This document shows positions 1 to 57,000 of a DNA stretch of 64,000 nucleotides, in pieces (position 1 is the stretch's first letter; each line of letters opens with the position of its first letter). The notes under the pieces are model-generated. The model was not told the origin of the DNA and did no database searches. It was given only the letters and a program-made list of their open reading frames with translations. Origin of the DNA: Zychaea mexicana (taxonomy: Eukaryota > Mucoromycota > Mucoromycetes > Mucorales > Lichtheimiaceae); the NCBI RefSeq assembly GCF_025766255.1, contig NW_026516686.1, positions 124,001 through 188,000 of the forward strand. Reading direction: 5' to 3'. The translations under genes were made by a program, and so were the position numbers.

Positions 1-1477
1 TTTGTTACAGAATAAAGCTCTTAATACATGATATTCTATTTGTTCTATGGACTGCAAGTAGCACACATGAATAATACCTCAGCTGTGTGGTGAACCACAT
101 TAATACACTGCTTAAGATATCAACAATAAGATATTCGGTTGAACATTATAGCACACACGTATGAACACTACGGCATTTCGGCTAAACACTATTGAATAAA
201 ATCTCTCACTCAGATGATCCACCTTACGTGAACAGGACAATGAACCTATCAACAGGTACCTCGGCCATTACATCAGCTAACGCCGGTTTCAAAGATGTGC
301 CCGATTAACATAGCGAATTCAATAGAAGTTCTGATACGTCCTTGATCCATCCTCTATCACATAGTTTATCCATTAGTCGGATGATTTGATATCGCCGTCT
401 TAATAGCTAGAATATAAAAGAGCTTTATCTTTTGTTGGAATAAAACATCATCTCAAAGATACTTAATCTTGTCCCTTATTATCTTTATTAAAGCTCTATC
501 ATCACAAGCTGGATTATAGGTGCATGTACTACGTTGATTATACCCGGACGGAACTAAGAATTGAGGGTGATTAGAAAAATATAAAATTTAGAGTGTATTT
601 TTAATGATTGCTCGTTGTACATGCAACACAACAAATGATGTCATATCTTAATATATAAGCATTGCTCTTTAGTTGTTGTTGGTGTCTTGTTGTCGTGTAG
701 CAAAATGGGCACCAACCAGACTACAGAGATGAAAAAAACACTGTTATCGTAGCAGTTTCACACTTACACATCGCATCTTCCTCCATAGCAATAGACTATA
801 TATAGCGGCACGACATCCAGCTCATGTGCACAAGCAACATGCGCAAACAAGCTCGTTGGACTGAAAAATGAAGCTATAAGAGCCGAGCATATATATATAT
901 ATATATTGTACGGCACTTTCCCCGCACACGACGACCCGATAAGGTAAGTGTGCCAAACGGCAGAACGATGTAGCGCATTTTAGGCTAGAATCCAGACAAC
1001 TTTTTGCTGGCTTGTGCGACATGGTTTTGTTCAACAATCATCTCTGCTGAGATTATTATTTTTAAACATGACACAAGCACACACGCAAATTCGCCAGGAC
1101 CCGCCTGTTGTTCACCCAAGAGTGTCCTTTTGTTTGCCCTAACTCCTTTCTTTCAGGCACACGACCACTCACAACAGCACATTAAACATAAACGCACATA
1201 AACACACATAATTAAACTATCCTTCCCCCCTCCTCTCTCTCTCTCTTTCTCTCTCTCTCGCTTCCTCCCACCCGCTGCTGCCCCTTCCATTCTTTACTTT
1301 AACAACAAAACGCAGTAAGGAAAACCACACTAGAAAACACACGCGAAGCGCGACTTAATCTCTCCTTCTCCTTCTCTTTCTCTCTCTCAATCTCACACTC
1401 TTACACACACACACACTCTCTCTCTTCGTTTTCAAGCATACATTCAGCAAACAATCAACTCTTGGAAAAGCAACAGA
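1..1477. other. Intergenic region and leader of the RhoGAP gene
   Basis: No coding region could be supported here. An AT microsatellite sits near 893-907. The last 260 bases before the start codon at 1478 are dominated by C/T-rich tracts (about 1222-1262 and 1361-1432), a composition seen before several genes of this window and typical of fungal core promoters and 5' leaders. No TATA box or terminator could be assigned with confidence. Confidence 0.5.
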
Positions 1478-4400: not shown

Positions 4401-5436
4401 GAATACTACGATGTGCATGCGGTTGCTGGCCTATTGAAAATGTGGCTTCGAGAGCTACCGACGAGCGTGTTGTCGCGCGAACTGCGAACGGATTTCCTGC
4501 ATGTCATTGATCTCTTGGACCGAAAGGACCGCGTGAACGAACTGGGCCGATTGGTATCTCAACTGCCGCTCGCCAACTATACCTTGCTGCGTGCACTCAC
4601 TGCGCATCTGATCCGTGTCGTGCAGCACTCGGATATCAACAAGATGACGGTACGCAACGTCAGTATCGTGTTTTCTCCTACCCTTGGTATACCTGCCATG
4701 ATCTTCAACTTGTTCATGAGTGAGTTCGAGTATGTGTTTTGGACGACTGAAGATGGCGATGCTGCTCCTCGTCGTATTGAAGACGAGCCTGCGTCGTCTT
4801 GTTCTTCTCCAGCTCCTCCCCGTCCTCCACCCGCTGTCGCAGTCGCTACCTCAGTGGATGATGAAACGGCATCGTGTCCGTTAGCAACACAGCAGCAAGA
4901 CGACAGGGCAACAGCACCTCAACCTTCTTTAGCAACGCAACAAGCAGAAAGATCATCCGAACAGCAGCCACCAGCACCAGCAGCAGCACCTGCACCTGCA
5001 CCAGCACAACCAGCTCTGGGAAGAAAGCCAACGCTTAAATTGCGAGAAGAATTTGGTCGCAGCAACCGCAATAGTGTCAACTATCTCGACGGTGCACCCA
5101 ATGCTATTGTGGAGTTAGAGCGACACATGGATGGTGAGTTCTAGCTATTTTAATGCATATAAGCACTGCCATATTTGCTATGGGTGAGGCATGTTACTAA
5201 ATGAAGAAGGTATAGGACCACCGGTTCTTGACGAGGACGATGAGGACTTTAACGAACTATCGCTGACATCTGCACCACGGGTCTCTGAAGACGACACCTG
5301 CTCGATAAAGAGTTCAGATATCAGCACTACACCTCACGATCAACAGCAGCAGCCATCACCATCTCATCCAACTAATACTACCAATACTACTTCTACTACT
5401 ACCACTACTACTACTACCTTTACAACTACTAGTTAA
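1478..5436 (+). CDS. BEM3: Bem3-type RhoGAP with coiled coil, PX, PH and RhoGAP domains
   Basis: GTPase-activating protein expected to switch off Cdc42/Rho GTPases at polarised membranes. Exons by splice signals and frame: 1478-2425, 2543-2644, 2742-2852, 2943-3050, 3201-5133, 5216-5436, giving 1140 residues. In order: an N/Q-rich start and predicted coiled coil (about 20-75), a Ser/Pro-rich linker, a PX domain (about 260-386, split by two introns), a PH domain from KEGYLTKRGKNFGGWKSRYF (about 392-498), a long low-complexity linker, and the RhoGAP domain (about 753-935). The arginine finger is the Arg in GLYRLSGS (about residue 796), and the domain also has NVSIVFSPTL. The C-terminus is an acidic DEDDEDF stretch followed by Gln/Pro/Thr runs. 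This domain order is that of yeast Bem3. The PX and PH domains should bind phosphoinositides (family knowledge). Exon 1 alone would end at an intronic stop, so splicing is required. Confidence 0.9.
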
Positions 5437-5474
5437 TCTGTTTCTATATTGTCCACTCACTCTACCCCTCAGTC

Positions 5475-5505
<31 letters not shown>

Positions 5506-5928
5506 ATACTCTCTATCTATCGCTGTGTCTCTCTCTCTCTCTGAAAGAATAATCTCACTTTCCTCCCCTTCCCCATGACTCTATTTAAAGAAGAAGGGGG
5601 CTAACAAAAATAATGCCATATTACTCTCACTCTGTCTATTCCTGATCGCTTCTTGAAGCGATAGTTACTCTGAACAGGGAAAAGGACTGCACGATCATGA
5701 TAAAATACTGCGTACATTCATCCACACTGTACATGACGCTTACACTTATTTAATTATCCATCACATTATCCCTTACACCCCCTTTATTTTTCTCTCTCTC
5801 TCTCTTTTTTTTTTTTCTTCCTTTCACTTGTTTGTTTGGAAACAACAAGCAAAAGACTACTTTTCTCTCTTCCTCTTGTTTTCATTTTCCCTCTTTTCGC
5901 CTTTTTTTTCTTAACTTTTTTTCTTTTA
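5437..5928. other. Intergenic spacer with CT repeats
   Basis: The spacer between the RhoGAP and NIPA-type genes holds two long CT microsatellites (about 5479-5512 and 5528-5542) and a T-rich/CT-rich leader (5790-5927) directly before the ATG at 5929. No gene was seen. Confidence 0.5.
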
Positions 5929-8516
5929 ATGGCCGGTGACGAACCCGTCATTAACTTTGTCATTGGCGTTTTTGTCTCATTAGGTAAATCCCTCAAGTGC
6001 TCTTTCATGACTTTAAAAAGAAACATAAAAACACCTTCTTCCTAAAAGAGAAACTAAAAAATGTACGATGATACTTTTCCAACCCAAAATGAAACAGGCG
6101 CATCATTTTTGGACGCACTCGGCTTGAACTTGCTTAAACTAGACCACGTCAAGGAATCACAAAAATCGCCCAGCGAACAACGATCCGACTGTGGCCGACC
6201 TTTGTGGCATATCGGCCTATACACTTACATTGCAAGCCAACTGATCGGCAGCACGATCGCCTTGAGTAAGCCATTCATCACCATCCTCCATTTCATCCCC
6301 TCCCATGGATACTTTGTACTTATCATTGGGAAGCTTTAATAACCATCATCATCATCACTCAACTTAGATTATCTCAAAACACAAGTAAGACAAAATTCAT
6401 GCTTCGCACCTCCCCCCCGCTCCTCATTTGTGTTACTAAAGAAAAAAAGCGCCGATTTGAAAATGATTTCCCAACTGTATCATTGTATGGAAAATTAGTG
6501 GGTCGCACCCTTAGGCAGCGTGGCCCTCATTTACAACTTTCTCTTTGCAAAGATCCTCGTTGGCACCAAAATCACTCGCAAAGATGTTCTGGGCACTTGT
6601 GTAGTTGTAGCCTCAGTCATTTGGATCGTTGTGTTTGGTGGCATGTACAATGGCGATGATCGTAAGTGTTATCTTTCCTTTCTCTTGTGTGCCTACACCA
6701 CACAGAGGCACACCCCGCGTGCGTAGAATAGCGAGTGAAAAACTACTTTCGCTTGGTAGTATTCAGTAACAAAGGCAGTGCCAGTAGTCATCGTAACGAC
6801 AGCTTAGCAAAGCACGCGCAGCTTTTGTCAAGATGAGATGAAAATAATATTAATTATAACCGAACATATCAATGATATATTTTATATGTAGCGGAAGATA
6901 CGATTTCTTTAGAGAATCTCAAAATGCTATTTACACGACCCATCTTTATCATCTATTTCAGCGCTTTGAACATTATAACATTCTCGGGCCTGATCTTTGC
7001 CATCTGGTCTCGCTGGGTACTGGCTGACGACTCTCGGAAACGCAATAGCCAGTTGTTTTTGAATATGAAGCCTAAGCAAATGCTCAGAATCGTCGGTTTA
7101 ATGTTCAGTTTGGAAGGCGGTATGCTTGCTAGTGAGACGCTTTTGCTTGCAAAGAGTGGGTATGTAGTTCTTTTTCATAGCGTTGTCAATTAGACAGATA
7201 CCGAATGACTGACTGACTGACTGATCGTCTATCGCTAGCGTCAAGTTGTTTACACTTTCTGTGAATTCGCAAGTCAATCAGTTTACAGACAACACGAGTC
7301 GGTTCATTCTACTAGCATTGTTGATTACGGCAATATTACAGGCAGGTTAATGTTTAAGAAACCATTGATTGTGTGCGCGCGTGGTGTGTGTGTGTGTGCA
7401 TGCGGGAGGAGGGGTATTTTATATAAAAAATATATATAGATAGAATTCTTTTCATCCGGGGGGGGGAATGATGCTCAATGTCCCTGATAATAATATTATT
7501 AACACAACCATTACTTTCTTCTCTCACCCCCTCCCCCCCGCTCCCTCCCCTACTTATTCAAATATTAACAATAACAATGCCAATAGGTCTACTGCTTAAA
7601 CACGGCATTGAAACTATACAGTTCGGTGGTTGTAGTTCCAGTATTCTACGGCACATACACGGCGCTCGGATTGGTCAATACAATCATCTATTTGGATGAA
7701 ATCGGCAATTATCCAGGCTGGGCGATTGCATTGGTCTTTATCGGCATTGGTGTCCTAATCTACGGCGTGTTCCTCCTAAGTTCGAAACCCGATCCATCTT
7801 CTCGACATCCAGATGACGAAGACGACGACGAGGAAAGAAGGGAGCAACCAGATCCGAGACAAAGCGGGTCTTATTGTCCAGGAGGAGGAGGAGGAACTCT
7901 AGGAGGTAGTGGTACTAGTGGTAGTGGTGGTGTAGGATTAGGAGGAGCAAGAGGAGGTGCTGGGGCCTCGTCCATGCAAGAGCGAGCGACTGCGAATGAT
8001 ACTATGCAAAACGAAGAAATGCAGACGATCCACCACAACAAATCGTGGCCAAGTGCGCATGACGAAAAGAATCAGCATGAACGACTACAAGGTTTCTTTG
8101 CGGCTTCCTCTCCCTCTTTAGCGATACCTCCTCCACCACCCCCACCTCCAGTAACAGCCACAGCAATATCAGTCACTGTAGCAGCGGAAGAATTGCCACC
8201 AGCAATAGTACAGCCAGTAATTACGGAACCTCAACCTTCGTTTTCTCGAGCTGACCATCAGCAGCAACAACAGCAACAACAACATCATCAGCGATGGTGG
8301 AATCGATTTACGTTCCAAAAAGGACAGCAACGACGACAGCACCAGCAGCAAAAACAACAAGCAGAAGCGTCGGCAGGATCTCCCGAAATGGCTATGCATA
8401 GCTTACGACGTCGCACAGCCATGGAAAACAATGACACTAGTAGCAGCAGCGCACCACAACGAGCATCGAGTAGTAATATCGAGATACCACACACAATAAT
8501 CAAGGTCAAGCCATGA
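5929..8516 (+). CDS. NIPA-family (DUF803) magnesium transporter
   Basis: Multi-pass membrane protein of the NIPA/DUF803 family, whose members transport Mg2+ in endosomes and the plasma membrane. Exons: 5929-5983, 6098-6265, 6368-6384 (only 17 nt), 6499-6661, 6892-7159, 7239-7341, 7587-8516, giving 567 residues. Family landmarks are PLWHIGLYTYIASQLIGSTI, then across the micro-exon NYLKTQWVAPLGSVALIYNF, then LGTCVVVASVIWIVVFGGMY, and finally LNTALKLYSSVVVVPVFYG in the last exon. The membrane core ends near residue 320. The remaining tail is a low-complexity, Gly/Gln/Pro-rich cytosolic extension of about 240 residues, longer than in most family members. The intron 7342-7586 only keeps the frame if its donor is GC (CAG|GCAGGT). 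The start is the first ATG that reads into the domain. Confidence 0.88.
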
Positions 8517-8953
8517 AGCACACACATTCCATTTTGTATAGAAAAACAACAGCAACAAAACCAAGTCCAGCATCACAATTTGTTTTTTACCTTCTTTACA
8601 TACAAACATTTACGCCAAAACTATTGTAAAATCAAAAAACAACTACTTTTCTTGCATTTCTTCAAAGTACGCACACATCCATTCTTCTATACACATATAG
8701 CACACAACGCAGCACTTTTTTAAATTTTTAATAGCAGATAATTCAAGGGCGAAAATATACATATGTCGCATAATAATAATAGTAATAATAATAATAATAG
8801 TGATTTTCATTGCCGAAATTTTCTTTGATATTATGCCTTGTAAAAAGCCGTACTGCCCAGGTAGTCATCGATTGTTTTGTGTTCTATTGGACAGTGTGTC
8901 AGACAAGAGAAGGAGAAACGTCAGTACAAATATGACTTGAGAGAAAAAGTGAT
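8517..8953. other. Convergent 3' intergenic region
   Basis: The NIPA-type gene ends at 8516 and the Cables-like gene on the other strand ends at 8954, so this spacer must hold both 3' ends. It is AT-rich, with an ATA/AAT trinucleotide tract near 8768-8803. No gene was seen. Confidence 0.5.
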
Positions 8954-11016
8954 TCACAACATACCCAGGACTTGAAATATGCGTTCAAAGTGTGGCATGA
9001 ATTCGCTGTTGCGTATGTACAAGTTGAATTCAAGATCAGCAAATACAGCAAATTCGTGCTCGCGGATCTCTTTAGAATCCACATCCAATTCATCGTCAAT
9101 CGCCTATATATTTGGGGTCACATATGTTAGAGTAATGTCATTTCATGTCAGGTATCCCTGTTGACACGTACATCGAAAAGTGGCTCAAACCAGGATCCTT
9201 TAGCTTCATTGACTTTGGTAGCCAAGAACAAACAGCATGCTAAACGGTTGTGATCGCATGAATGAGTCAGTTGTTGTTGAGATAATGCTCTTCTCTTTTT
9301 CCCGGCCTCCTTCGGTTCCAAGACATACCTGCTATTAACTTTCTGTTCTTTTTCGTAACGACGTTCTAGGCCCCAGCAACACCCCCAATACTCATGTCAG
9401 TGGAAAACGCCCATAATCCGGCCAAGGAAAGAAAAAAAAAAGGAGTACAACACAAATAGAAAAGCCTCTTCTACCTTGATCACCAATTTTTCGAAATATA
9501 CAAATGCATGGGCCACGCTGGATATTTCCAAATCCACTACCTTACCGATCTCTACCAAATGCGTCTTGATAGCTCGGATCTTACTCAACGTAATTTCCGG
9601 AGGAATTTCAGGGTGTATGTGCCGGAACTGTTCGTTCAGCTCGCGCTTCATTTCTGAAGGTCGCATACCCGCATGATTGGATCCCTGATTATCATCATTT
9701 GTGTAAACAAAATTTGCATTAGTACTCTCTCTTTTTTTCTTGCTTTCTTTTTATATACTATGTGATGATAAACCTGAGAGCTAGATAAGATGCCAAATCG
9801 ATTATAGGACTCGTCATCAAGATAGCTTGGATCATAGTCAGATGTTTCTTCAGCAGTTGGCCGATCTCTGTCAAATGAAGATCAAAGTGTGCAGTCAGAT
9901 TCTCTCTTTCCTTATTTTGTCAGTCTATACACACACAACGCCTCCTCCTTGAATTGCTTACTCTAATGAATTGGATGGTACTAAAAAGTGTGCATAGGAT
10001 AACGCGGGTCGACGCTTATTGTTGTCATGGCTTGCTAATTGTTGTTGCCTATTTGCATTGGCACGTCAGTGATTGTCCCCCTTTTAATTCTTTAGATGCC
10101 AATCGATAACTTACAGGTAACCGCGGTTGAAGGACTGATCAGCTTTTCGTTTGCCTGATGAGAATCGAATTTTCTCCGTGTAATACCGAACAACCGACAT
10201 GATGCTGCCACCATTGTAGTTCTACCAACAATTTAAAAAACAACTAAAGTGTCAATAACAGAAGCATAGGATCGAACTGATGAAATAATTTTTTCCAAAA
10301 ACCTCTTTATCCGTATTGTGCGATTTCTTTTTGATTTTTTCAGAAGCAATCGGACGTTCGCTGTCCTCTCTAGTTAACTTGTGATGCTGTACGTTGTCGT
10401 CGCTTTCAAGTGACCAACGACGTCTTTGTTGCTGTTGTTGCTGTAGTTGGCTTTGGCTTTGGCTTTGTTGTTGTTGTTGCTGCAAGTGAATCTGTTCACT
10501 CAACAGCGATGTCATAACGGATGTCGAGGAAGCCAATGGTGGAACATTAGCACGGGCTTCAGCGCTGGGTACGGGGGCGGAACCTGCCAACTCGGCTGAT
10601 ATGTTGCTGTCACTAGAATTGAGCGATCCTCCTGCTATGCATACCATTTGATAAATATTTTTAATGTTAAATTGTCTCAAGAAAGGACAAAATGAAATTC
10701 AAAAAATAAAGAGGACACCTCCTCTCTCTCTCTCTCTCTCTTTTCAAAGCACACCTTCGGTTGAACGTAATGGTTGTTGTGGTTGTTGTTGTTGTTGAAC
10801 GTATGAAAGCTCAGTGTGTAATTCTGGACGGGAGCTTTCATTATTGTAGTGTGATTCAAGCGATGCTGGACTAGCAAGTGGTACGTTGTTGTTGTTAAAG
10901 TCTGTGTTAGCGTTGTTATTGTTCTGTTCGTTGCCCAAGGAAATGTTGGATAGAAATGAAAAGGCAGCTGGTCTCGAGTTATTACGCCTGGATTTACGAC
11001 TTTTCGTCGTGCCCAT
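8954..11016 (-). CDS. Cables-like cyclin-box protein
   Basis: Homologue of the animal CABLES family (Cdk5 and Abl enzyme substrate), cyclin-box proteins thought to link cyclin-dependent kinases to other kinases. Exons in transcript order: 11016-10755, 10634-10303, 10221-10115, 10048-9962, 9867-9774, 9684-9475, 9365-9329, 9239-9172, 9103-8954, giving 448 residues with phases agreeing at all eight junctions. Residues 1-200 are Asn/Gln/Ser-rich and unlikely to be folded. The conserved core starts near residue 299 (MKRELNEQFRHIHPEIPPEI) and includes LSKIRAIKTHLVEIGKVVDL, AHAFVYFEKLVIK, NRKLIAACCLFLATKV and HEFAVFADLEFNL. The match to CABLES is from remembered family patterns (QNRKLCAG.C.LLAAK, EF.VL..LEF.L). 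It lies convergent to the NIPA gene. A generic cyclin is the main alternative, but the VYFEKL...NRKL spacing favours Cables. Confidence 0.78.
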
Positions 11017-33859: not shown

Positions 33860-34087
33860 TACAGGATTTTTCCTAATGATTGGCGGGGCTTTTTTTCCGA
33901 TCATGGCGGGGCTTTTTTTTCACTTTGTCGTTGGGTGTGTTTGTGATTGGCGGTGTGATTTTCGTGAATGGCAGGAGGAAAAAAATACAATGGCGGCCGA
34001 GTTACAGGTTGATGGCAGAATAATAAATTCATAATGGCGGCCATAATTTCAGGTTGATGGCAGAATAGTAAATCCATAATGGCGGTT
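33860..34087. repeat. Left terminal inverted repeat of the 6.2 kb element
   Basis: It begins TACAGGATTTTTCC and contains paired internal units: GGCGGGGC twice near the tip, and two units built on GGTTGATGGCAGAATA further in. The repeated words are candidate transposase-binding sites (inference). Confidence 0.9.
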
Positions 34088-34253
34088 GGGTAATTATGGT
34101 AATCGTTTTGCCTTCTTTTTCTCAGCATGACAGTTAATGATTTTCAACAACTCTATATTTTATTAAAAAAAACATATATATATATATGAAAAAAAAAGTA
34201 AAAGGAAAAAATATAGAAGGGCAGTAAAAAAACATATAAAATATGAAAAAAAA

Positions 34254-35576
34254 CTACAGCATCTTCTCTCCTTCTATACACCTAGGCACAAACGTAAGGG
34301 AGTGGCGAATCCATCCTTGGCAATCTTGGGCGGTGACTTCATAGGCGGAGTTGATGATGCGCGGCAGCAAGGTGTCGTCTGTGGTCAGTAAATGGCGTTT
34401 GACACCTGCCTTGAGCTTTGACCAAAATTCCTCAATTGGATTGAGGAATGGGCTGTAGGGCGGGAGAAAGAGGATCTCGAATCCTTGCTTGGCAATGGCA
34501 TCCCGAACTTCATCAGTCTTGTGGATAGCGGCATTACCCAATACCAAGGTCCTTCCACCCATACCATTTTCGGTGAGCACCTTCATCATTACTTCCAAAA
34601 ATTCGATAAAATGCTCCGCCCGAGTGCCGATTTTGCCCATCACCTTTTCTTCACCGTCACGCGTCTTGCGTTTCTTGGAAGCGACAACCGCTTGAGGTCT
34701 CCGGAGACTCAAGTTGATTACACCTTCACCAGTGATGGCACCCAAGATCGTAATATTGACCCCACGCGACTTAGAAACCAAGGCCTTGGCGGGCTCACCT
34801 CGTCTCGATCAACCAAAGTTACGCTTAATGTGCATGTTGAAGCCAGCCTCATCAATAAAGACGCATTTGTGGTAATTAATGCCACTGGCTTCAAATGCGT
34901 GTGCCCAGTTGATCCGGGAAGCGATCGTTTCATCGGAGTTGCGGTACTCAGAGATCCGTTCCAACTTCTTCATAGTAAGCCCGCATTTGCTAACAAGGTG
35001 CTTCTGGAGGCCACTTTGAGTGATGCTGATGCCGAATCGATCAACAAGCGATTGCTGTGCTTCTTTGAGGGTCGCATCTGACTTGGTATCGTAATACGCC
35101 TGGAGAAATGCTGTGTGTTCGGGTGTCAAGGTTGGTGGAGGACCAGGAGATTTACCCATTGTACTTGGGAGATATGGCTCACCGTCGACAAATCGTTTCC
35201 AGTATCGCTGTGCGGTTCGTTCAGGGATCAACAAGTCGCGCCCAGCCTCTGCAGCGTTTAAAGTGACATTTTGGATTCTATCGATCAATTGGATAATTTC
35301 TGGATCTCGATACACTCGATGAGCTCCTATAGGAATTAAGAGTTTTGGATTAGATATCAGAAGCAACTAGAGGTTTAATGTTATTAAGTAAGGTTTAGTA
35401 ATAGTAAGTAGCATACTTTTTGGGATGACAGGCTCTTTTGGAGGGTTTTTGCGAGGTCTTCCCCTTCCCTTTTTCACTGATTCCGTTTGGTTTTCTGCGG
35501 CTTCAGTACCAGGCGAAGTGGACGTTGGAGGATCGATTACCTTGGATGTAGAAATTTCCTGTGAATTACCAACCAT
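34254..35576 (-). pseudogene. DDE_3 (Tc1/IS630-type) transposase, inactivated
   Basis: Exons 35576-35417 and 35326-34254 (intron with GT-AG ends) read 410 codons. The first exon holds a Lys/Arg AT-hook-like stretch (KKGRGRPRKNPPKEP). An HTH follows (TLNAAEAGRDLLIPERTAQR), then a linker and the catalytic domain with the first Asp in CVFIDEAGFNMH and the Glu in FLNPIEEFWSKLK. Two defects are visible. A TGA stop at 34809-34811 replaces a residue that is usually Trp in the family pattern. The second catalytic position reads LVLGNAAIHK where the family has DNAAIHK (codon 34536-34538). The remainder is in frame and well conserved, so the losses are recent. Other copies in the genome could supply active enzyme. 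Confidence 0.85.
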
Positions 35577-35645
35577 TAATTAATAAAATATATAGAATAC
35601 ATATCATGTTCTACAGAATTATTGACCAATATATTTTGTAAGTAC

Positions 35646-35813
35646 CTACGATGTAGTTTTTATCTTGGTCATCGATACAAGGGAGTGTACACCACCAGTA
35701 TGGCCACTAAATTCATCGGATACGATTTGGTACACGTCGTCTACTTCCATCTCCTCTTCATGCATATCAACGTCAGTATTGTATGGTAGCGTTAAATTTT
35801 TGATGGATAACAT
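35646..35813 (-). CDS. Short acidic ORF inside the 6.2 kb element
   Basis: A 55-codon frame (MLSIKNLTLPYNTDVDMHEE, then EEMEVDDVYQIVSDEF) lies just upstream of the transposase on the same strand. It could be an upstream exon of the transposase, but no donor joins it in the needed phase (the clear GTAGGT donor at its end gives phase 2, while the next acceptor needs phase 0). It could also be a separate small protein. The acidic composition is like the N-termini of the other small proteins of the element. Confidence 0.35.
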   Translation of the reverse strand: MLSIKNLTLPYNTDVDMHEEEMEVDDVYQIVSDEFSGHTGGVHSLVSMTKIKTTS

Positions 35814-36126
35814 GGTGATAGTTGATGTAAAAAATCGAGTGATAATAATACTGTATGGACAAGTACAATAAATAAAATGATTCATACTTTTCAATTCTGT
35901 GAATTTGTTATTGAACAGAACTTGTAAGGTAACACCAAATGGGACAAAAAACAGTAGTTTTTTTAAATCCATTAGATCAACTCGCAATAATGTCACCCAT
36001 GTTAAACCCACTAAGCAAGATACAGTTTGTAGCTAATTATAAAAAGTATCCCACCATTGTTACATAAAGCAAGTATTTGTTTAGAGACAACCAGCAGAGA
36101 AAAAAATATTTATTAATAAAAAAAAA

Positions 36127-36624
36127 CTACGGATGTTGTAAAGCTGCCTCCAGAATACCATCATTAACCTTCGTCAAGAAGTGGTTACTCTTAGGAGCAC
36201 AGGGCCGTTTGGGTGGTGGTGGCATGTGGGGGCGGTAGATGCGGATGAGTCTTGATGCCGTTCCCTTCGGCATCTTCACCTTGGCGCCGGCTTGCTCGAT
36301 TGTAAGCCCATCCCAAAAATAGGCGCGCAGCACCACTACGACCTCGTCTTGGTTGTACCCGCGGCGGGGTGCTCGTTGCCGTCTTCGTGGTGGTGATGGC
36401 GATGATGGGGCAGAGGAGGCAGAGGAGGCGGAGGATGGAGACCGCGATGCTGATGATGATGATGATGATGGTGATGTTGTAGTGTCTTCTTCAAAGTCAC
36501 CAAAAGGAAGAGCCTTGCTCAATTCCTGAGTATTGTATACATCGAGACTGCCTTGCATGTCCACGTCTAATTCAAACTGCATGAGGTCGAGGGAGGAGTC
36601 GTTTGTAGAAATGATATCGGACAT
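36127..36624 (-). CDS. Small HTH protein of the 6.2 kb element, minus-strand side
   Basis: A single exon of 165 residues with a real ATG. It has an acidic N-terminus (LDLMQFELDVDMQGSLDVYN), a Ser/Ala/Pro run, a basic patch (PPRRRQRAPRRGYNQDE), then AYFWDGLTIEQAGAKVKMPK continuing with GTASRLIRIYRPHMPPPP. The last part has the pattern A-(4 to 6 residues)-I/M-P-x-x-T-A-x-R, shared with the transposase DNA-binding region. A DNA-binding regulator of the element is the likely role (inference). It is transcribed away from the central repeats. Confidence 0.7.
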   Translation of the reverse strand: MSDIISTNDSSLDLMQFELDVDMQGSLDVYNTQELSKALPFGDFEEDTTTSPSSSSSSASRSPSSASSASSAPSSPSPPRRRQRAPRRGYNQDEVVVVLRAYFWDGLTIEQAGAKVKMPKGTASRLIRIYRPHMPPPPKRPCAPKSNHFLTKVNDGILEAALQHP

Positions 36625-36779
36625 GATTAATAGTAAATTTAGAATGAGTTATTACAAGCAATGGATTTGAATCATCGGTTTATATACTTTTTTGTTCCGT
36701 ACCTACAGATATATATAATTAAGCAATCCACAATGGTATCTACAACAGATGACAACATTCCATTATAACGCATAGACTT

Positions 36780-37450
36780 GAAGTTTCAACATAGAGTATA
36801 TATGAATGCTACACCAGATGGGACAAAAAAATCACAGCAAAGCATAATTACGTGTATGTGTGAAGATCTAGTAAGAAGTATAATGCAGTGTTGCACGAAC
36901 TGGGACGGCATAAAGTAATAGCGGAGGGTGATTCCATTCCATCTTATGTGGTTCCATTCCATTGTTTGAATAAGAAAATAAAATATAACAGCAAAGCATA
37001 GTAGCGTGTATGCGTGAGGATCTACCAAGAAGTATAATGAAGCGTTGCACGAAGTGGGACAAAAAACCGACAGCAAAGTATAATTACGTGTATGTGTGAG
37101 GATCTAGTAAGAAGTATAATGGAGTGTTGCACGAACTGGGACGGCATAAAGTAATAGCGGAGGGTGATTGCATTCCATTTCGTGCAACGCTTTATACTTC
37201 TTACTAGATCCTCGCTGTGGTTTTTTTTTGTCCCATTTCGTGCAACGCTTCATTATACTTCTTGCTAGATCTTCATATGGATACAAGCTATTAAACTTTG
37301 CTGTGATTTTTTTTGTCCCATTTCGTGCAACACTTCGTTATATTTTATTTTCATATACAGATAATGGAATGAAATCACCTTCCGTACTTTATGCCGCCCC
37401 ATTTCGTGCAACATTTCATTATGCTTCTTGCTAGATCTTCATGTGGATAC
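36780..37450. promoter_or_regulatory. Mirrored repeat cluster between divergent genes of the element
   Basis: Units built on GATCTAGTAAGAAGTATAAT followed by GTTGCACGAA(C/G)TGGGAC occur in one orientation at about 36860-36905, 37018-37062 and 37098-37142. They occur in the opposite orientation at about 37186-37215, 37231-37272, 37313-37345 and 37396-37440. The mirror axis is near 37180. The block lies between the divergently transcribed halves, so it is a candidate bidirectional control region or internal binding array (inference). Confidence 0.7.
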
Positions 37451-37594
37451 TCTACCCTATTCTTCTACAGTACTGTAGGTTTGCAAGGATCATATCTTAC
37501 TTATAGTTTATTTATTTCCTACCTGAAAATTTCTGATTATAAACTTTCTTTTTACTCTATCTGTCTGAATTCTCACTACGTAGTCCTTTCCAGC

Positions 37595-38065
37595 ATGGCA
37601 AGCATTGTCCTTTCTCATAAAGAAATACGTGAAGCTGTCAATGTCAGTGAGGGAGAAGACCCTTACATTGGTATGTTTATATAATCGAAGATTATATCCT
37701 TTGGCCACTATTCTAATGCTTTAATAGAGGAATTTATAAGAACCTTAGATGCAATGCGGCTGGAAGAAGATTACGAACCAGTCGACGAGCTCCCCTGTGT
37801 TAAGGCAGTTCAAGATCTAGTGCAACTGGTGGAACAGCTCCAAGAAGAAATCACAACACTGACAACTGTCAAAAAACGAACATATACTAAATGGAACAAG
37901 GATGATGAAGAAATCAAGAAAGCAATTAAAGATTGTGCCCTTGAAAGACGCGACTACGGTAGAACCAAAGTTCCAGCAGCTACAATGCATCGCTGGGTTA
38001 TGCAATTTATCGATACTGAGGAAGGTCAAGCAGTTTTGCGAGAGCATCATTTGAAAACCAAATAA
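37595..38065 (+). CDS. Small coiled-coil/HTH-like protein of the 6.2 kb element
   Basis: Exons 37595-37670 and 37728-38065 give 137 residues. An acidic N-terminal part (EEDYEPVDELPCVKAVQDLV) leads to a short coiled coil (QLVEQLQEEITTL), then a basic domain KKRTYTKWNKDDEEIKKAIK and RTKVPAATMHRWVMQFIDTE. The VPAATMHRW segment is positioned like the recognition helix of the other HTH proteins of the element. The splice (G|AG) restores the frame exactly. No named family is recognised. Confidence 0.65.
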
Positions 38066-38364
38066 ATGCATTTCTTTTGTCAAAAAATAATTTTTTTTCT
38101 TCATACAGTAGTCTGTCTCTTTATTTTTGTGAATCATCACAAATACTGGATAAGATAACCTTACAAACATCTATTACTGGATCTTTTTGGTGGTGTCACA
38201 AACCAGCAATATAGTTTAACGGCATATGCGTAAGAAAACTAAGCCGTTTGTAACTATTTTGTATCCCGAAAGCATGTGGTTACATAAGAGAAAACCATAA
38301 ACTATTTAAACCAAAGACAAGTCTATTTTCCGAATGTATAAATCACTCTATCTTTTTCGTAACA

Positions 38365-38905
38365 ATGAACAACAACAACAACAACATCTCCTTTACAAAA
38401 TTTCTGGAATTTGAATTGTGGGATGAATCCATGTTGGAACCATTCGATCCGAGTAAGTTCAACTAAACATTACTATCAAAAAACAGCGCGTTACTCATCT
38501 ATTTCCATTATATATAGCTACACCTACGGATATTCTTCCGGAAGAAGACCTGGGCAACCTGGTTTACCTTGTAGTTGACAAAATGGAAACCAGTACGTCC
38601 CAAACACATTTTACCATTATTCAAAAGATGCGTGCAACTTGTTAATTTTTAGTTTACTGATGTAACAAAAACATATCTTCTGTCTAGGTCAACTGGTCCA
38701 TAATCAAGGTAGCCAGGAAGACCAGGTCAGCAACAACAATTATGGGGTTAACAGAACCTTTCATACTGACTCCAAACAAGCATACTTGATCCACCTCTAC
38801 TTTAATATGGGGTGGTCAATACGAAAGGCAGCGGAGGAAGCAAAGATCCCGAAATCAACAGCACAAAGATACATAAAAAATAAAAAAAATAAAAAAAATA
38901 AATAA
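38365..38905 (+). CDS. Small HTH protein of the 6.2 kb element, plus-strand side
   Basis: Exons 38365-38452, 38518-38592 and 38688-38905 give 126 residues. The N-terminus is acidic and aromatic (FLEFELWDESMLEPFDP). The C-terminus is an HTH (YFNMGWSIRKAAEEAKIPKS continuing TAQRYIKN) closely resembling the transposase segment AAEAGRDLLIPERTAQRY, followed by a Lys/Asn tail up to the stop. Acidic head plus DNA-binding tail is the same layout as the minus-strand HTH protein. A role as activator or competitor at the element's repeats is an inference. Confidence 0.7.
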
Positions 38906-39182
38906 ATAAGCTTTCTTGGAAAAAATTACTTTGACTGGTTTGAGTCATAGATAAATGGTGGTGGTATGAGTGAGTAGGACTATAGGAATATTCAGGGACA
39001 AAATGGTTGTAGATAGCAATAATGATCAATTAAAAATATGATATAACATCTAGTCTTACTATTTTTATATATTCCTGTAACCATAGATTTATATTGTGGT
39101 ATGAGTGTGGGTGTGGGTGTGAGTGACATGTGAGATTGAGCTTGGGTTACATTTTAAAAACATATAAAGCAGCATACCTGCA

Positions 39183-39613
39183 ATGGCAAGAATTGTTTCA
39201 CTCATTCTCAAGATGTCGCTTAATCTCTGGCGTTACTTCATTACGTCGTATCACATCGTCACAGCTCTGCAAATAAAAGGTATTACATCTATTCTTATTA
39301 ATCTTATTTATTCTTCTTTTGTTTATACTTCTATTATAGAGCGCCATCAAACAGATCTCGAATATCGCGTATACTTCGACAAAGAACTATATTTCCTACT
39401 AGATGAAATAGATGGAGAGGAGCTGCTGGATGTAATCTGGCGACGACCAGTCAAGCTGCCAGTGAAGACCAAAGAACCGTTCACCGAGTTTTGGCCGAAT
39501 GGAATGAAGTCCGCTGGACATTGCTTCTAATGCAGGATCGGCTTTTGTGGATTGAAGAAATTTTCGCAAGATTGAAGTTTCTCTTGTTATGTGAAGTACC
39601 TCTTGTATTGTAA
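39183..39613 (+). pseudogene. Third small plus-strand gene of the 6.2 kb element, probably frameshifted
   Basis: Exons 39183-39279 and 39340-39530 read 95 residues (ALQIKERHQTDLEYRVYFDK, then ELYFLLDEIDGEELLDV). From about 39430 a different frame continues to a stop at 39611-39613 and looks more protein-like: TTSQAASEDQRTVHRVLAEW then LLLMQDRLLWIEEIFARLKF. The DQRTVHRVLAEW part resembles the HTH pattern of the sister proteins. A single-base indel between about 39405 and 39440 would join the two parts. I do not restore it here. Confidence 0.45.
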
Positions 39614-39860
39614 ATAAAACCTTTTACATACACATGATCATTATTTTTCGTTTGCGATATCTTTTTTTGCGATTCTTTTATGGTTCTCAGAGCATCTATG
39701 TTGCTATATAAGGGTGATGTGCTAATCATCTAGTAGAAACTTGCCACTCCTATTATCATGTCTCATACATCTTCCCATGTTTGTGATGTATTTAATGAGA
39801 TGAACTGCTTTAGTATCTAATGTCATTTTTTAAAAATGATGCCGCTAATGATATAATTCA

Positions 39861-40088
39861 AACCGCCATTATGAATTTACTATTCTGCCATCAACCTGAA
39901 ATTACGGCCGCCATTATGAATTTATTATTCTGCCATCAACCTGTAATTCGGCCGCCATTGTATTTTTTTCCTCCTGCCATTCACGAAAATCACACCGCCA
40001 ATCACAAACACCCCCAACGACAAAGTGAAAAAAAAGCCCCGCCATGATGGGAAAAAAAGCCCCGCCAATCATTAGGAAAAATCCTGTA
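39861..40088. repeat. Right terminal inverted repeat of the 6.2 kb element
   Basis: Inverse copy of 33860-34087, ending GGAAAAATCCTGTA next to the TA duplication at 40089-40090. Confidence 0.9.
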
Positions 40089-40688: not shown

Positions 40689-41951
40689 TTAAAGTACCTC
40701 AGTATATACAACATTTCTGGTGTACATGCCTTCTTGACCGTCAACCTTGGAATCATCACGATCCAAGGTGATCAGTACAGAGCGTGGCGTTCTGACCCGC
40801 GACAATGCTACATATAGTAGACCATGAGTAAAAACAGGTTTCGGTAGATATAGGCCAATTGTGTCAAATGTTTGTCCTTGAGCCTTGTTGATCGTCATTG
40901 AAAATGCAAGCCGTATAGGGAACTGTGTCCTTTGGAATTTGATGGGACCTTCGCTCTTTTTCGAAGTAAGTGTGATGCGAGGCAATAGGACTGTTTCGCC
41001 AACATGTGTACCTGTGGCGATTTCAGCTTCAATGACATTGCGGCGAAAAGATGTGATGATTAAACGCGTTCCGTTGCAAAGGCCTTGAGCAGTATTCAGG
41101 TTTCGTAAGAGCATGACAGGACAACCTGGCTTGCGAGTGAGTTTGTGTGGTGGAAGACCGGAAGGAGAAAGTGAGTTTAAAAGCTCCGTTGGATATGCCA
41201 AGGACTCTTCAGGATCGACCATGCTGTCTGCACTGAGAAACTCCTCAGACGTTCCAGGGAATTTTGATTCCAATATTGTTTCGTTGATTGTTGCAACGTC
41301 GATATTTTTGGGTGTCAGAATAGCTCGTGACATGAGGAACTCGTGAGAGGGAGAGGTTTTAAGCATATTGCCATATAAAGTGTCAATCAAAGTGAGTAGG
41401 TTGTATCCAGGCATTAGCATAGAGTCACGGACTTTGATTCTATCTTCAGTTCCAGGAGCAATTGGCTCTCTGTTTTCACCTATTCGCAATAGATATTCGG
41501 CAAACTCTCGTAATTGTTCAAAGTTGTGGGCGTCGGTGGCTTGCTGTACACGCATATTGGTCTGAAGATGGAAGACTTGGGTGTGGCGCCATACATTGGA
41601 TCGCTTTAAGCATTGTGCCACAATCTGTGCTCGAGAAGCTCTAGGAATGACTGGAAGAACCTGTACAACAATATACAATCAAAGTCAAGTTGTTTACCTC
41701 AATACCCTGCAGATTAATAGAAATGTATGATTACCTGGCGAAAATCACTGCCAAAAACAACTAATTTTCCACCAAAAGGAACATGCTTTAATGCCGGGTC
41801 TTCTGACTTCATCAGATCTTACAAACTTCGATTGACGCATTCAATGAGATCTTTGCTGATCATTGATGCTACGTCCCATATGATCAAAGTTGCAAGTCTT
41901 AGAAGTTGTGCTGTGGCAGATCGTGGTGTAAATGAGCAGTATGTGGTTTGA
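40689..41951 (-). pseudogene. Helitron-type Pif1-like helicase, truncated and interrupted
   Basis: C-terminal part of the replication-type DNA helicase of a Helitron. In transcript order, an exon ending at 41735 (LIIWDVASMISKDLIECVNR, then FGGKLVVFGSDFRQ) joins across a GT-AG intron to 41660-40689 (VLPVIPRASRAQIVAQCLKR, then HLQTNMRV). The DNA-binding end is conserved: NKAQGQTFDTIGLYLPKPVF and LLYVALSRVRTPRSVLITLD. The Walker A part and the Rep nuclease are absent. A TAA stop at 41819-41821 interrupts the upstream exon. The 5' side breaks at the inverted duplication boundary (41951/41952). Confidence 0.85.
40747..41204. repeat. Left arm of a 458-bp inverted duplication
   Basis: This arm is the reverse complement of 41952-42409. 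By eye I find one difference (a TTG/TCG codon in the LLYVALSRVR segment). The spacer is 747 bases. Confidence 0.9.
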
Positions 41952-44054: not shown

Positions 44055-44715
44055 CATGTGATCAATAAAAGTTACTTTTTCTCACCTCCTTGTATGCTTA
44101 TCAATTACGTAACTATGCGCGTTGTCACGATATGAGCAGCAGCATCCTTATACTTTTATTTTCATCTTCAAACATTCACTATCATACTTCATCAACCTGT
44201 ATTTCTCTCGTGGTTCATCATACTCTATCACTTTGTTGATCTTTTCCGCATTCCCTCCCTCGGTACAATAACATACAACAAAAAAAAATTTTTTTTGGCA
44301 TCTTAAAGCTTTTCCTTGTTGAGACACTGAAAAAAGCATCTCGCAGAATGGGAAACAAAGCCTTCAAAGCCACTGAAATATAAACTATTACATGCCTCAC
44401 CAATTCTAGTCCATTTCATCAAAAGTGGCTCAGATAATGACCTGTCACTGCTCCGATGCTATAAGCAATAGTCTCACATCCAAGCTTTCACATTGCGACG
44501 TCGCTTGTGTCTCTGACATGCTCTTTGTACACTTCTTGTCGTTGCCGAATTAGTGTTATAGTAAAGCTCGAGTGAAATATCCACACTATATCCTGTTCTT
44601 TTGCAGTTGCTCTTGAATTTAAGTTGCTAGCACCATTGGCTGCATATTTTGTTCCATTCAGCTTACCATATGGTCCCTTTCAGTATTATTACGACCCAGT
44701 TAACTTTTACTATGT
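43085..44715. repeat. Dispersed repeat, copy B
   Basis: Aligns with the four segments of copy A, including about 650 bases of shared non-coding 3' DNA (44055-44715). The similarity outside the coding part shows that the gene moved or was duplicated as a longer unit. Confidence 0.85.
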
Positions 44716-44739
44716 TATGCTTGGCTACTTGGCTTTTAT

Positions 44740-45063
44740 TCATGTTCAAAACTGTCCAGACGTCCGGTATGAGGTAGAAAAATCCTCTATACTGGCCACT
44801 AAGAAGCCAGTGGAGCATCCCTTATGTTACTTATTGCGGTTACCGAGCTTGCAGTGACAGGATCACTTCCTGCACAGCACATGCATCCAATGCAACCAAT
44901 ACATTTCGCTCAACGTGTCCTTGTACCGGAAGTGGCAGCGCGCATTGTTCGGCAAGACCTTAGTGTATATTATGTTAGAGCATTACTAATACTGGATGAC
45001 AGTAGAGTATATGGAATGATACCCTTTCCTACAGATGAAAGTGATAGTGACAGCGGTGAATAA
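44740..45063 (+). pseudogene. C-terminal fragment of an unidentified protein
   Basis: Two overlapping frames carry one apparent protein end: VRYEVEKSSILATKKPVEHP, then after a frame change near 44825 ITELAVTGSLP-like sequence, HFAQRVLVPEVAARIVRQDL and an acidic tail FPTDESDSDSGE before the stop at 45061. It looks like the 3' end of a repeat-family gene joined to copy B, or an intron lies at the frame change. I do not recognise a named domain. Confidence 0.35.
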
Positions 45064-54027: not shown

Positions 54028-57000
54028 TTATGATCTTCTGGTCTTCTTTGACATCTTGATTTTTTTAGGTTGGAACTGTTTGTTTTCTTTAGCAATGATC
54101 TCGTTTGCAGATACATTCTTGCGCTTCTTTGACGAGTTTGCGTTCTTGATGCTGACGACTGGTGATTTGCTTTTGCCCTTGTTCAAGGCTTCCACCTGCG
54201 CTTGAGCAGCCGACCAGTCCTTGTCTTCGCCACCAATTGCGTACTGTGACAAATCCAGCTTGTCAATCATCTCGCGCTGCTTGGCCTTGAGTCCATCGAC
54301 AACTTCGTCACCAGCTTCCTTCAGTTCATCGTCCATGGACTGCTTGAGCGGTCGCCATGCTTCGTCATCCTCAATATCCCGCTTATCCTTGGTACCCATC
54401 ATTTCCTCGTCTTCTTCGGCAGCTGCAGCTGCTTCAATCTCCTTTTTCTTTTTCTTCAGCTCCGGCGATTCTTCTTCGATAGCGTCGCTCTGGACCTGGG
54501 TAAAGTGTTGGCTGACCTTGCGCACAATCTTGACGAACATGGCAAGCACCTGGTTGCTAGCCAGTGACAGTTCCTTTTCCAAGTCTTCAACAGACTTGCG
54601 CTGAAGACCAATACCCATCAAGATGGAGCTTTGGACACCAGACAGCTTGACACCAGGGGACAATTCGCCGCGGAAGTACAAAAAGGCAACAGTAGGAATC
54701 AAATCGAGAATAACGTGGTAATCAAGCATGTTGTTCGAGTACGAGTCCAGACGCTTCAGATCGTAAGGCGAGAAGTGCATGTCCAGGCGGGTTTTGGTGA
54801 TACTGTTCGATTCTTGGCGACCGTGATGTGCTGCCTCAAGCACGCTGAGTGCATTGATGACTGGGAATTCACGGAATTGGTACGACAACAAGCTCAGGAA
54901 ACGTCTGGAGAAATCACCAGCAAACGCATCCAACCAAGCTGCACTTGAAAGACCTCCTTCCAAGGTGTTGACCATCACACATGTATGCTCGCCAGTCAAG
55001 TCGTTGGCCGTTTGACGGACATACAAGGGCACAAAGCCGGAGCGTTTCCAGAACTTGTGCAAAGCGGGCGTCATACCGTACGAGACACCGAGGTAGTCAA
55101 GACGGGGTGGTCGTCTTTCGCTCAAGTTGGTCAAAAGAGGAGGCATCTTGAGCGGATCACGGACCTTAATTTGATCTGTCTTCAGGTCAGCGTTTTCCAG
55201 TTCATCGTCTTCCACACGCGTGATGGTCTCTTCCTCATCGTCACCCGTCGACTCGCTCAAACTAGACATATCGCCCTGGTAGTACGATTTCAGGAGCTCA
55301 AGAGCGCGCGAACCGTAACCCATGTTGGCATAATCGGGGTGAGTGGCGATACGAACGACACGTGCACCGGACAAGCTTGCAAAGTCATCATCTTGGAACT
55401 GTTGCGAGACGAGCCAAGGAATCATGTCACCGGCAGGACGCTGACCGCGCGAAAGCGAGTTGATGACGGTCTGGCGCGAGATTTCACCTTCCAAACAGAC
55501 TTGCACGACGACAAGTGGGTCCGGAAGGCTCGTGCTGGCATGAGCCATGGGAGGAAGAAGCACAAACAAATGGTGAGCTGGAGCATCACTCATGAGCTGC
55601 AAATCGTTGGGCGAATTCTTGTAATGGCTTGCAACATAGAGTGCCATCATGCGCTGCAGGAATGTTTCGCTGACAGGATGGTAAGAGAAAAGTGTGTCGC
55701 GGTTGACATAGTACAGCTCGCATTCGGAAGGATGCGGGCAACCTTGGATGTTCTTGGATATGATTGAAGCATCCAAGCACAACAGCTCGTTCAGCCACTT
55801 TTCGACAGGATCGTTGGGTCCGTAACGAATAGGTTCCTCAAGCTTGATTTCCTTGAGTGTGCGACCTCCCAAACCTTCGGTGTCGTCGATTTGCTTCTTG
55901 GCAACCATGTCACGACCCACCATCACGTTCTCGCCCGAGGCATCCTTGGCAACGCCACCCGTTTTGCCAACGAAACCGCGCGACTGCTCACGAAGCTGCT
56001 GGATCAACTTGAGAGAGAGAGATCGGCCAGTACCTTCGTAACCGTTGATGGTGGATGCCATGAAAACGAGGTAGGGGCCCAAAAGCTTGCGAACGATGGG
56101 CAAGGGAATTGCAGCGGCTTCATCGATCACGAGCAATTCGGCTTGACCGAGGACATGAGCGTCTTGAGGCTGAATGTACTGGATCGTCTGACGATGCTGT
56201 CTGAAAATGTTGACGCGGACAATAGCCTTGTTAAACTCAGGGTTGGTGGATTGAACGATATCGTAATCGAGATGTTCTTCATAACCGAGTGCGTCGAATG
56301 TCTTGAAGACAAACTCAAAGAGCGTCTTTAGATTCTCGGGGCTCGGCGAGGTGACAAAAATGTTGGAATAGCCATAAGCAACGGCGGATGCCATGGCAAT
56401 ACCGAGAGCGGCGGATTTACCACGACCACGCGCTGCTGTCAAGGCAACCGTACTGCGGAGCGACTTTTCAGAAATGGCTTCGATGAATGTGAGGACAGCC
56501 TTGGCCTGATCCACCGTACGTGCACATTTGACCAGCGATCCCACTGGCTCGGTGTCCGCAAGCGACTCCTTCAACTCGTCCAATTCCATTTCCTCTTCTG
56601 TCTTTTGTTCCTCGGCGCTCTTAACTGGCAGAGGCTTGACGTGTTTGCCCATGCTGATGGGAAGTACGTTCAATTCGTCGTCGACAACAAGGCAGTTCTC
56701 GCTGGAACCCAATGACAAGATGAATCGTTCGTTAAAACGAGCAACGATATCGTTATGAGCTTCCGTTCTGTATCGGTAATGGACATCCTAACATTGAATT
56801 TTTTTCGCATAGATCAATGGTAAATTCACTGTTTTTTCTTCCTATATCCATATGGATGCACTACCCATTTTCCATTGGTTTTTAACGTACCATAGCCATT
56901 GTGTACAGCTGCTTGAGCGAGCTCATGTTCTTGAGCAAGAGAACAACCATACCGCCGCCTTCAACAGTCTCAATGGTTCGGGCGAGGGTATTGGGCGTGA

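What the first reader, a model, noticed from the sequence alone, without database searches (positions are those of the whole stretch)
33860..40088. A 6.2 kb Tc1/IS630-like transposon carrying several extra small DNA-binding genes
The sequence directly shows 228-bp inverted termini, flanking TA, a DDE_3-type transposase and at least four additional small genes arranged divergently around a mirrored centre. Members of the Tc1/mariner/IS630 superfamily normally have one gene and short termini (established knowledge). A self-contained set of regulators inside such an element may be an undescribed transposon type (inference).
Basis: partly seen in the sequence, partly recalled or inferred. Interest (0 to 1): 0.9.

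Follow-up and report, generated by a model that had tools for sequence, protein, structure and literature searches.

The report
Jumping gene carrying its own regulators
In a genome that is likely a mould's, a 6.2-kb jumping gene of the Tc1/mariner type, seen in ten copies with both ends, carries three extra small genes, two of them related to the predicted DNA-binding part of its own transposase, and these likely control when it moves; that is unusual because elements of this type normally carry one gene.

Summary
Window 33860-40088 is a real, probably recently active DNA transposon. It has 228-bp inverted termini, a TA target duplication (supported by an empty site elsewhere in the window) and a three-exon DDE_3, DD34E transposase; ten copies with both ends were fetched. 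The window copy's transposase is broken; 5 of 9 aligned copies are open. Three small genes (C, D, E) are supported. Their order is constant in 13 of 13 fetched complete copies with a full-length transposase region, over three subfamilies whose C and D proteins are only 32-54% identical, with dN/dS mostly below 0.46. D homologues apparently neighbour the transposase in Circinella minor too. C and E share the transposase's helix-turn-helix; D shows no such relation. Two DNA arrays accompany the genes: nine WTGGCRG sites per terminus at 22-bp period, and a TGGGAC array in the divergent centre. Best reading: a multi-component Tc1/mariner element whose accessory proteins likely control it, working like Spm TNPA or Harbinger ORF1. 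Ciliate TBE elements are the nearest precedent. New variant of a known kind; binding and regulation are untested.

The parts
33860..40088 (.). complete transposon, 6229 nt including one TA of the target duplication at each end
   Evidence: nine further copies with both ends fetched, eight of them 98.6-99.4% identical to it, the ninth (C123) in pieces at 98.5-99.8% with an insert
33860..33861 (.). TA target-site duplication, left
   Evidence: empty site at window 44231-44717
40087..40088 (.). TA target-site duplication, right
33860..34087 (+). left terminal inverted repeat
   Evidence: 97.8% identical to the right one over 228 nt
39861..40088 (-). right terminal inverted repeat
33880..34085 (+). 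array of nine WTGGCRG motifs at about 22-bp period (one slot empty)
   Evidence: 9 observed; 2000 dinucleotide shuffles mean 0.27, max 3
39863..40068 (-). mirror array of nine WTGGCRG motifs in the right terminus
34254..35326 (-). transposase exon 3 (HTH and DDE_3 domain; premature stop in this copy)
35417..35558 (-). transposase exon 2 (AT-hook-like GRGRPRK; Pfam AT_hook only below its cut-off)
   Evidence: similar N-terminus in Circinella minor P0004/P0005
36127..36624 (-). gene C: acidic and Ser-rich N-terminus plus predicted three-helix HTH, 165 aa in this copy
36744..37450 (.). mirrored repeat centre between the divergent genes C and D, with the TGGGAC array
37595..37670 (+). gene D exon 1
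37728..38065 (+). gene D exon 2 (predicted long helix plus shorter helices; 137 aa in all)
38365..38452 (+). gene E exon 1 (acidic)
38518..38592 (+). gene E exon 2
38688..38905 (+). gene E exon 3 (HTH-like, Lys-rich tail; 126 aa in all)
39213..39530 (+). ORF F (two exons 39213-39279, 39340-39530; 85 aa), not supported as a gene
   Evidence: open in 9 of 9 aligned A copies but frame not conserved in B and not found in subfamily C
44231..44717 (+). paralogous copy of the insertion site without the transposon (empty site)

Best explanation
This is a 6.2-kb transposon of the Tc1/mariner (DDE_3) superfamily, fetched in ten copies with both ends from a likely Mucorales genome, that encodes besides its transposase three small proteins, two of which (C and E) share the transposase's own predicted helix-turn-helix, and these proteins likely control the element's transcription and movement by binding repeated motifs at its ends and centre. 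Shown: termini, TA duplication, gene order, conservation across subfamilies, the HTH relationship, and two motif arrays. Inferred: C and E arose as duplicates of the transposase's DNA-binding domain; with the transposase they would read the 22-bp-phased WTGGCRG arrays in the termini, helping or limiting assembly of the paired-end complex; the central TGGGAC array would be the control region of the divergent C and D promoters, possibly read by D, which has a long, perhaps coiled-coil, helix. The acidic N-termini of C, E and the transposase look like activation segments (inference, untested). The scheme works like TNPA/TNPD of Spm or ORF1/TPase of Harbinger, built on a Tc1 chassis.
For: Ten subfamily-A copies with both ends. 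tnp-C-centre-D-E order in A, B (L043) and C (L047, L052); the partial copies L053, L054, L057 keep it in the part that they hold. dN/dS between subfamilies: C 0.23-0.45, D 0.18-0.60, transposase exon 3 0.04-0.10. D homologues P0001/P0002 (59%, 50%) in C. minor stand on contigs of the same lengths as transposase homologues P0005/P0004, locus tags 4 and 7 apart. HHalign: C vs transposase 94.8% (E 4.8e-8), E vs transposase 95.0% (3.6e-8), C vs E 96.0% (4.5e-9). AlphaFold gives C a three-helix HTH at pLDDT about 91. WTGGCRG: 18 of 19 hits in the window element lie in the termini; 0 of 20000 random placements reached the observed phasing at 22 bp, a period picked after seeing it. TGGGAC: 3-11 central sites in each of six elements; first-order random sequences mean 0.2-1.1. 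A single-gene comparator, 46% identical (L058), is 1.9 kb, has no C or D hit and no WTGGCRG in its termini.
Confidence: 0.6

Rival explanations
1. The small proteins only repress: C and E are solo DNA-binding domains that compete with the transposase for the termini and keep copy number low, with no positive role.
For: C and E carry the transposase HTH without a catalytic domain, the architecture expected of a competitive inhibitor; D and E are open, and C in 3 of 4, in the aligned A copies whose transposase is broken (window, L031, L039, L042).
Against: All 13 fetched complete copies with a full-length transposase region carry them, and the family still spread to ten copies; the acidic N-termini would be superfluous (inference); Spm TNPA is both required and suppressive (PMC2613891, passages), so repression need not exclude a positive role.
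Confidence: 0.22
2. The small genes are passenger cargo captured from the host and have no role in the element.
For: Other elements with related termini hold different interiors (L044, L045/46, L048/49, L055, L056), so these ends can carry foreign DNA.
Against: 17 of 17 D places found lie beside at least one terminus; constant order over three subfamilies and apparent linkage in C. minor; dN/dS below 1 between subfamilies; C and E are related to the transposase itself. Three weak C-like hits elsewhere (C21, C39, C262; 34-40%) were not examined.
Confidence: 0.1
3. Two mobile elements are nested: a second element carrying C, D and E sits inside a plain Tc1 element, to the right of its transposase.
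For: C, the centre, D and E form one contiguous block (36127-38905) that one insertion could have brought in; nested or palindromic insertions are common in this genome.
Against: No second TIR pair around that block was listed (the 25 longest of 39 pairs shown); the same order recurs in subfamilies whose centres differ in sequence; C and E are related to the transposase of the outer element; no D was found outside such elements.
Confidence: 0.04

Closest known systems
TBE (telomere-bearing elements) of the ciliate Oxytricha
   Same: Tc1/mariner transposase plus two further ORFs under purifying selection, mixed orientation, a repeat stretch between ORFs, subfamilies that share transposase genes but differ in an accessory gene (PMC4724952 and PMC12242761, passages)
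   Different: TBE accessory proteins are a zinc-finger/kinase protein and a 22-kDa protein; here they are small proteins, two related to the transposase HTH; likely a mould rather than a ciliate; no 22-bp end array was described in the passages read
Tc1-MP1 of Mucor piriformis
   Same: Mucorales Tc1 element, DD34E, long TIRs (141 bp) (PMC9977792, passages)
   Different: 1,688 bp, a single ORF of 434 aa; no accessory genes
Tc1-OP1 of Ogataea
   Same: large Tc1 element (5,659 bp, 169-bp TIRs), called the largest of its superfamily (PMC9977792, passages)
   Different: one long ORF with a fused serine-rich domain; not several genes
CACTA (Spm/En)
   Same: element-encoded DNA-binding protein and reiterated motifs near the ends (PMC2613891, passages)
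   Different: CACTA ends and 3-bp duplication; two proteins (TNPA, TNPD), by alternative splicing in CACTA elements (PMC2836001, passage); transposase of another superfamily (recalled)
PIF/Harbinger
   Same: two independent genes, transposase plus a Myb-like HTH protein that binds the ends (PMC2836001, passages)
   Different: transposase lacks an obvious DNA-binding domain; 3-bp duplication (same passages)
Sleeping Beauty
   Same: Tc1 type, TIRs about 220 bp with repeated binding sites (PMC7827188, passages)
   Different: two sites per TIR against nine motifs here; one gene

Membership tests
IS630/Tc1/mariner superfamily | TA target-site duplication | tested here: met
   empty site in the window; TA at both ends of the listed copies
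IS630/Tc1/mariner superfamily | DDE/D transposase of the DDE_3 / Tc1 type | tested here: met
   DDE_3 E=9.3e-27; D158, D263, E298 in exon 3 of copy L036 nearly invariant in 20 sequences, i.e. DD34E spacing (assignment of the triad by recalled motifs); Sleeping Beauty the only PDB sequence at E<=0.001, 4.9e-6
IS630/Tc1/mariner superfamily | terminal inverted repeats | tested here: met
IS630/Tc1/mariner superfamily | bipartite N-terminal HTH of the transposase | tested here: inconclusive
   HTH_32 at 19.5 bits, below its cut-off of 33.7; HTH_33 weaker
IS630/Tc1/mariner superfamily | cut-and-paste activity | not testable with these tools
   copies 98.6-99.4% identical to the window's suggest recent activity only
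TBE (Oxytricha) | 57-kDa zinc-finger/kinase ORF | tested here: not met
   no such domain listed for C, D, E or F with Pfam up to E=5
TBE (Oxytricha) | telomere-like repeat ends (recalled) | tested here: not met
   ends are TA|CAGGATTTTTCC
CACTA (Spm/En) | CACTA termini and 3-bp duplication | tested here: not met
   CAGGATTTTTCC ends, TA duplication
CACTA (Spm/En) | reiterated subterminal motif | tested here: met
   9 WTGGCRG per terminus; shows likeness in layout, not membership
PIF/Harbinger | 3-bp duplication and its own transposase family | tested here: not met
   TA duplication, DDE_3

The most novel reading that the evidence does not exclude
A multi-component Tc1/mariner transposon in which the transposase's DNA-binding domain was duplicated into at least two stand-alone transcription-factor-like genes that co-evolve with a 22-bp-phased site array at each end and a symmetric central control region: an independent fungal invention of the Spm/Harbinger strategy, able to swap its transposase end between accessory modules.
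Probability: 0.45. Interest if true: 0.78.

Novelty: new variant of a known kind. Interest (0 to 1): 0.62.

Why it matters
Tc1/mariner elements are treated as the model of a one-gene transposon; a recent paper calls accessory proteins in the ciliate TBEs 'surprising' for the superfamily (PMC12242761, passage). A likely fungal lineage that adds stand-alone relatives of the transposase HTH, together with arrays of candidate binding sites, gives a testable case of how a simple transposon acquires self-regulation. A relative in the same genome, L058, is still a single-gene element, so the two states can be compared. The small genes and the 228-bp ends would suit a yeast excision assay.

Tried and rejected
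F as a conserved gene: rejected. D as a transposase-HTH duplicate: not supported. Gene C in the protein database: no hit at E<=0.001, but only the 7983 candidates sharing most words were scored and the query is Ser-rich, so this is uninformative. Structural matches for C and D: weak, not used for family naming. Multi-gene fungal Tc1/mariner in print: none seen in the listings of searches of the open PMC library (listings were partial: 15 of 33 papers, 10 of 36, 8 of 9; subscription papers are not covered). Further comparators (C35, C102, C67) could not be fetched; the single-gene comparison rests on L058 alone, and C35 is slightly closer (47%) but unseen. Ten of the 51 ends (C73, C241, C236, C263, C291:17497, C281, C46, C135, C179, C224) were not fetched. 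Host 18S lookup did not complete; the host is inferred from protein hits.
Full report
WHAT IS THERE. The window lies in a 50.3-Mb, 305-contig genome without a name. Its genes have GT-AG introns, and the hits that bear an organism name among the 120 listed of 466 transposase homologues are Mucorales moulds (order recalled), best Circinella minor at 75-77%, so the host is probably a Circinella-like mould (inference). At 33860-40088 sits an element with 228-bp inverted termini, 97.8% alike. Its left and right flanks both match another stretch of the window, 44231-44717, that has no element; joined over a single TA they align to it with one mismatch and no gap near the junction. So the insertion duplicated TA, and the element proper starts CAGGATTTTTCC.

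COPIES. A terminus search gives 40 places; a 30-nt end pattern with up to 3 mismatches gives 51, with 0 for the reversed control. Ten copies of the window's subfamily A were fetched with both ends: the window, L031, L032, L033/34, L036, L037, L038, L039, L040, L042. They are 6.2-6.45 kb, except L033/34 (11.5 kb with an insert). Against the window, the eight without the insert are 98.6-99.4% identical in one or two pieces. Left and right termini agree at 96.1-99.1% in nine of the ten and at 87.2% in L036. Subfamily B: L043 (7.75 kb, complete) and partial L022/L050, L026, L023/L061 and probably L028. Subfamily C: L047 (5.06 kb) and L052 (4.73 kb), complete, and partial L053, L054, L057. Five complete elements share the termini but not the gene set: L044, L045/46, L048/49, L055, L056. 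L035 (rearranged) and L041 (contig end) were left out of the counts, and ten ends were not fetched.

GENES. Gene models came from splice sites that line up across subfamilies and copies. In the window copy it has two premature stops and a changed catalytic residue; it is open in 5 of 9 aligned copies (L033/34 was not in that alignment). C (166 aa in the other open copies, 165 in the window) is open in 6 of 9, D (137 aa) in 9 of 9; E (126 aa) has no internal stop in 9 of 9, but one lacks the start codon and one ends differently. F (85 aa) is open in 9 of 9, but its frame is not conserved in subfamily B and it was not found in the subfamily-C loci, so I do not count it.

CONSTANT SET. All 13 fetched complete copies with a full-length transposase region (10 A, L043, L047, L052) hold C, D and E in the same order: transposase and C to the left, D and E to the right of a repeat centre. 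Some of these genes are broken, for example D in L047 and C and D in L052. In the genome, D was found at 17 places and each has at least one terminus of the family beside it. C has 19 distinct good places plus three weak ones (C21, C39, C262) that I did not examine. Fragments of close transposases (69-82% identical, 67-219 aa) on C68, C105, C270, C92, C124 and C1 were not examined. In Circinella minor the two D homologues carry locus tags 4 and 7 away from transposase homologues on contigs of the same length; the DNA was not seen. Between subfamilies dN/dS is 0.23-0.45 for C, 0.18-0.60 for D and 0.04-0.10 for transposase exon 3; within subfamily C it is 0.65-2.7 for C on very few changes and 0.39 for D. 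So between subfamilies the accessory genes have been selected as proteins, though less strictly than the transposase; several dS values exceed 1, so these ratios are rough.

WHAT THE PROTEINS ARE. Pfam passes its cut-off only for the transposase's DDE_3. Profile comparison ties C and E to the HTH just before the transposase's catalytic domain (94.8% and 95.0%) and to each other (96.0%), while D against the transposase or C gives 1.3% and 1.2%, which also shows that the method does not pair everything. AlphaFold gives C a compact three-helix HTH (pLDDT about 91) behind a low-confidence acidic, Ser-rich arm. D exon 2 is modelled as a long helix followed by shorter helices at moderate confidence. 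Structure look-ups are weak for both.

TWO DNA ARRAYS. Each terminus holds nine WTGGCRG motifs, all in one orientation, at 21-23 bp steps with one slot empty; shuffles of the terminus give a mean of 0.27 and a maximum of 3, and the interior of the element has one motif. With the looser NTGGCRG, the scored ends of the other families have 4-8 sites, mostly at 21-23 bp or multiples, except one end of L055 with a single site; the right ends of L044 and L048/49 were not scored. The C-D intergenic centre carries TGGGAC at 6, 6, 7, 3, 11 and 8 places in the window element, L043, L047, L052, L053 and L054; 500 first-order random sequences each give means of 0.2-1.1 and maxima of 3, 4, 4, 3, 6 and 4, so L052 alone does not exceed its control. 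In five of these six the sites point in opposite directions on the two sides; in L043 all point one way. The sites lie in longer local repeats, so they are not independent. The core is shared by the three subfamilies while the flanking repeat is not.

MECHANISM. I read this as a transposon with its own control proteins: the transposase and its stand-alone HTH relatives C and E would use the end arrays, and the centre would be a shared promoter region. The direction of effect is not known; a purely repressive role is the main rival. The layout is like Spm (TNPA on subterminal repeats; PMC2613891, passages) and Harbinger (ORF1 plus TPase; PMC2836001, passages), but the transposase, ends and TA duplication are Tc1. 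Against this reading, the ciliate TBE accessory proteins are reported not to alter DNA-binding profiles (PMC12242761, section heading).

ORIGIN. A comparator at C277 (L058; 46% identical transposase) is a 1.9-kb single-gene element without a C or D hit and without WTGGCRG in its termini. So the accessory set was probably gained within this lineage (inference; one comparator only). Subfamilies A and B are mosaics: in 100-column steps from the left end identity is 91-99% over about 1.3 kb, then 88, 80, 77, 78, 54, 76, 74 and 49%, and transposase exon 3 has dS 0.16 while C has dS 1.19. The ciliate TBE2 subfamilies show a similar split (PMC4724952, passages).

KNOWN OR NEW. The superfamily membership is firm. 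Multi-gene Tc1/mariner elements are known in ciliates (TBE), so this is not categorically new. In the Mucorales the described reference Tc1-MP1 is 1.7 kb with one ORF, and Tc1-OP1 at 5.66 kb was called the largest of its superfamily (PMC9977792, passages). No fungal multi-gene example was seen in the listings of my searches.

Noticed in passing
L051 1-6701 (G000:C240:742300-749000) and many contigs: Many DDE_3 transposases about 29-46% identical to the query occur as inverted pairs 3-15 kb apart; in L051 both 1.9-kb inverted arms (99.6% identical) contain a transposase. Transposons that duplicate their transposase inside long inverted arms, or assembly effects.
   Followed up: partly
L045/L046, L048/L049, L044: TIR-sharing elements that are giant palindromes or long-TIR forms: 198-9744 at 99.1% in the element of L045; inner arms of 4.04 kb at 99.98% in L048 with a separate DDE-like protein ending in a chromodomain-like stretch (named by eye, not scanned); 2.14-kb TIRs in L044.
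   Followed up: partly
L043 versus window element, first 2 kb: Mosaic between subfamilies: near-identical terminus and transposase end joined to strongly diverged accessory genes.
   Followed up: partly
window 40689-41678: PIF1-like helicase ORF (Pif1_2B_dom, PIF1) next to the element, possibly part of a Helitron.
   Followed up: no
window 44776-44791: Isolated TIR-like end (2 mismatches to TATACAGGATTTTTCC) close to the empty site; chance expectation 0.84 matches with up to 3 mismatches per window.
   Followed up: no
L058 2578-4154: ORFs that look like a non-LTR retrotransposon (gag-like, then endonuclease-like start) beside the single-gene Tc1 element; named by eye only.
   Followed up: no
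L038 and L039: Two A copies share an identical 360-bp right flank but no match was seen between their left flanks: recombination between copies or an assembly join.
   Followed up: no
G000:C21:9934, C39:27547, C262:83233: Weak C-like HTH hits (34-40% identical) outside the known elements.
   Followed up: no
L033/L034 (G000:C123:24746-36221): A copy of the element with about 5 kb of other DNA inserted in what would be the first intron of gene E.
   Followed up: no
window 3321-5141 and 54031-56718: Ordinary host genes: a RhoGAP protein and a NAT10-type RNA cytidine acetyltransferase.
   Followed up: no
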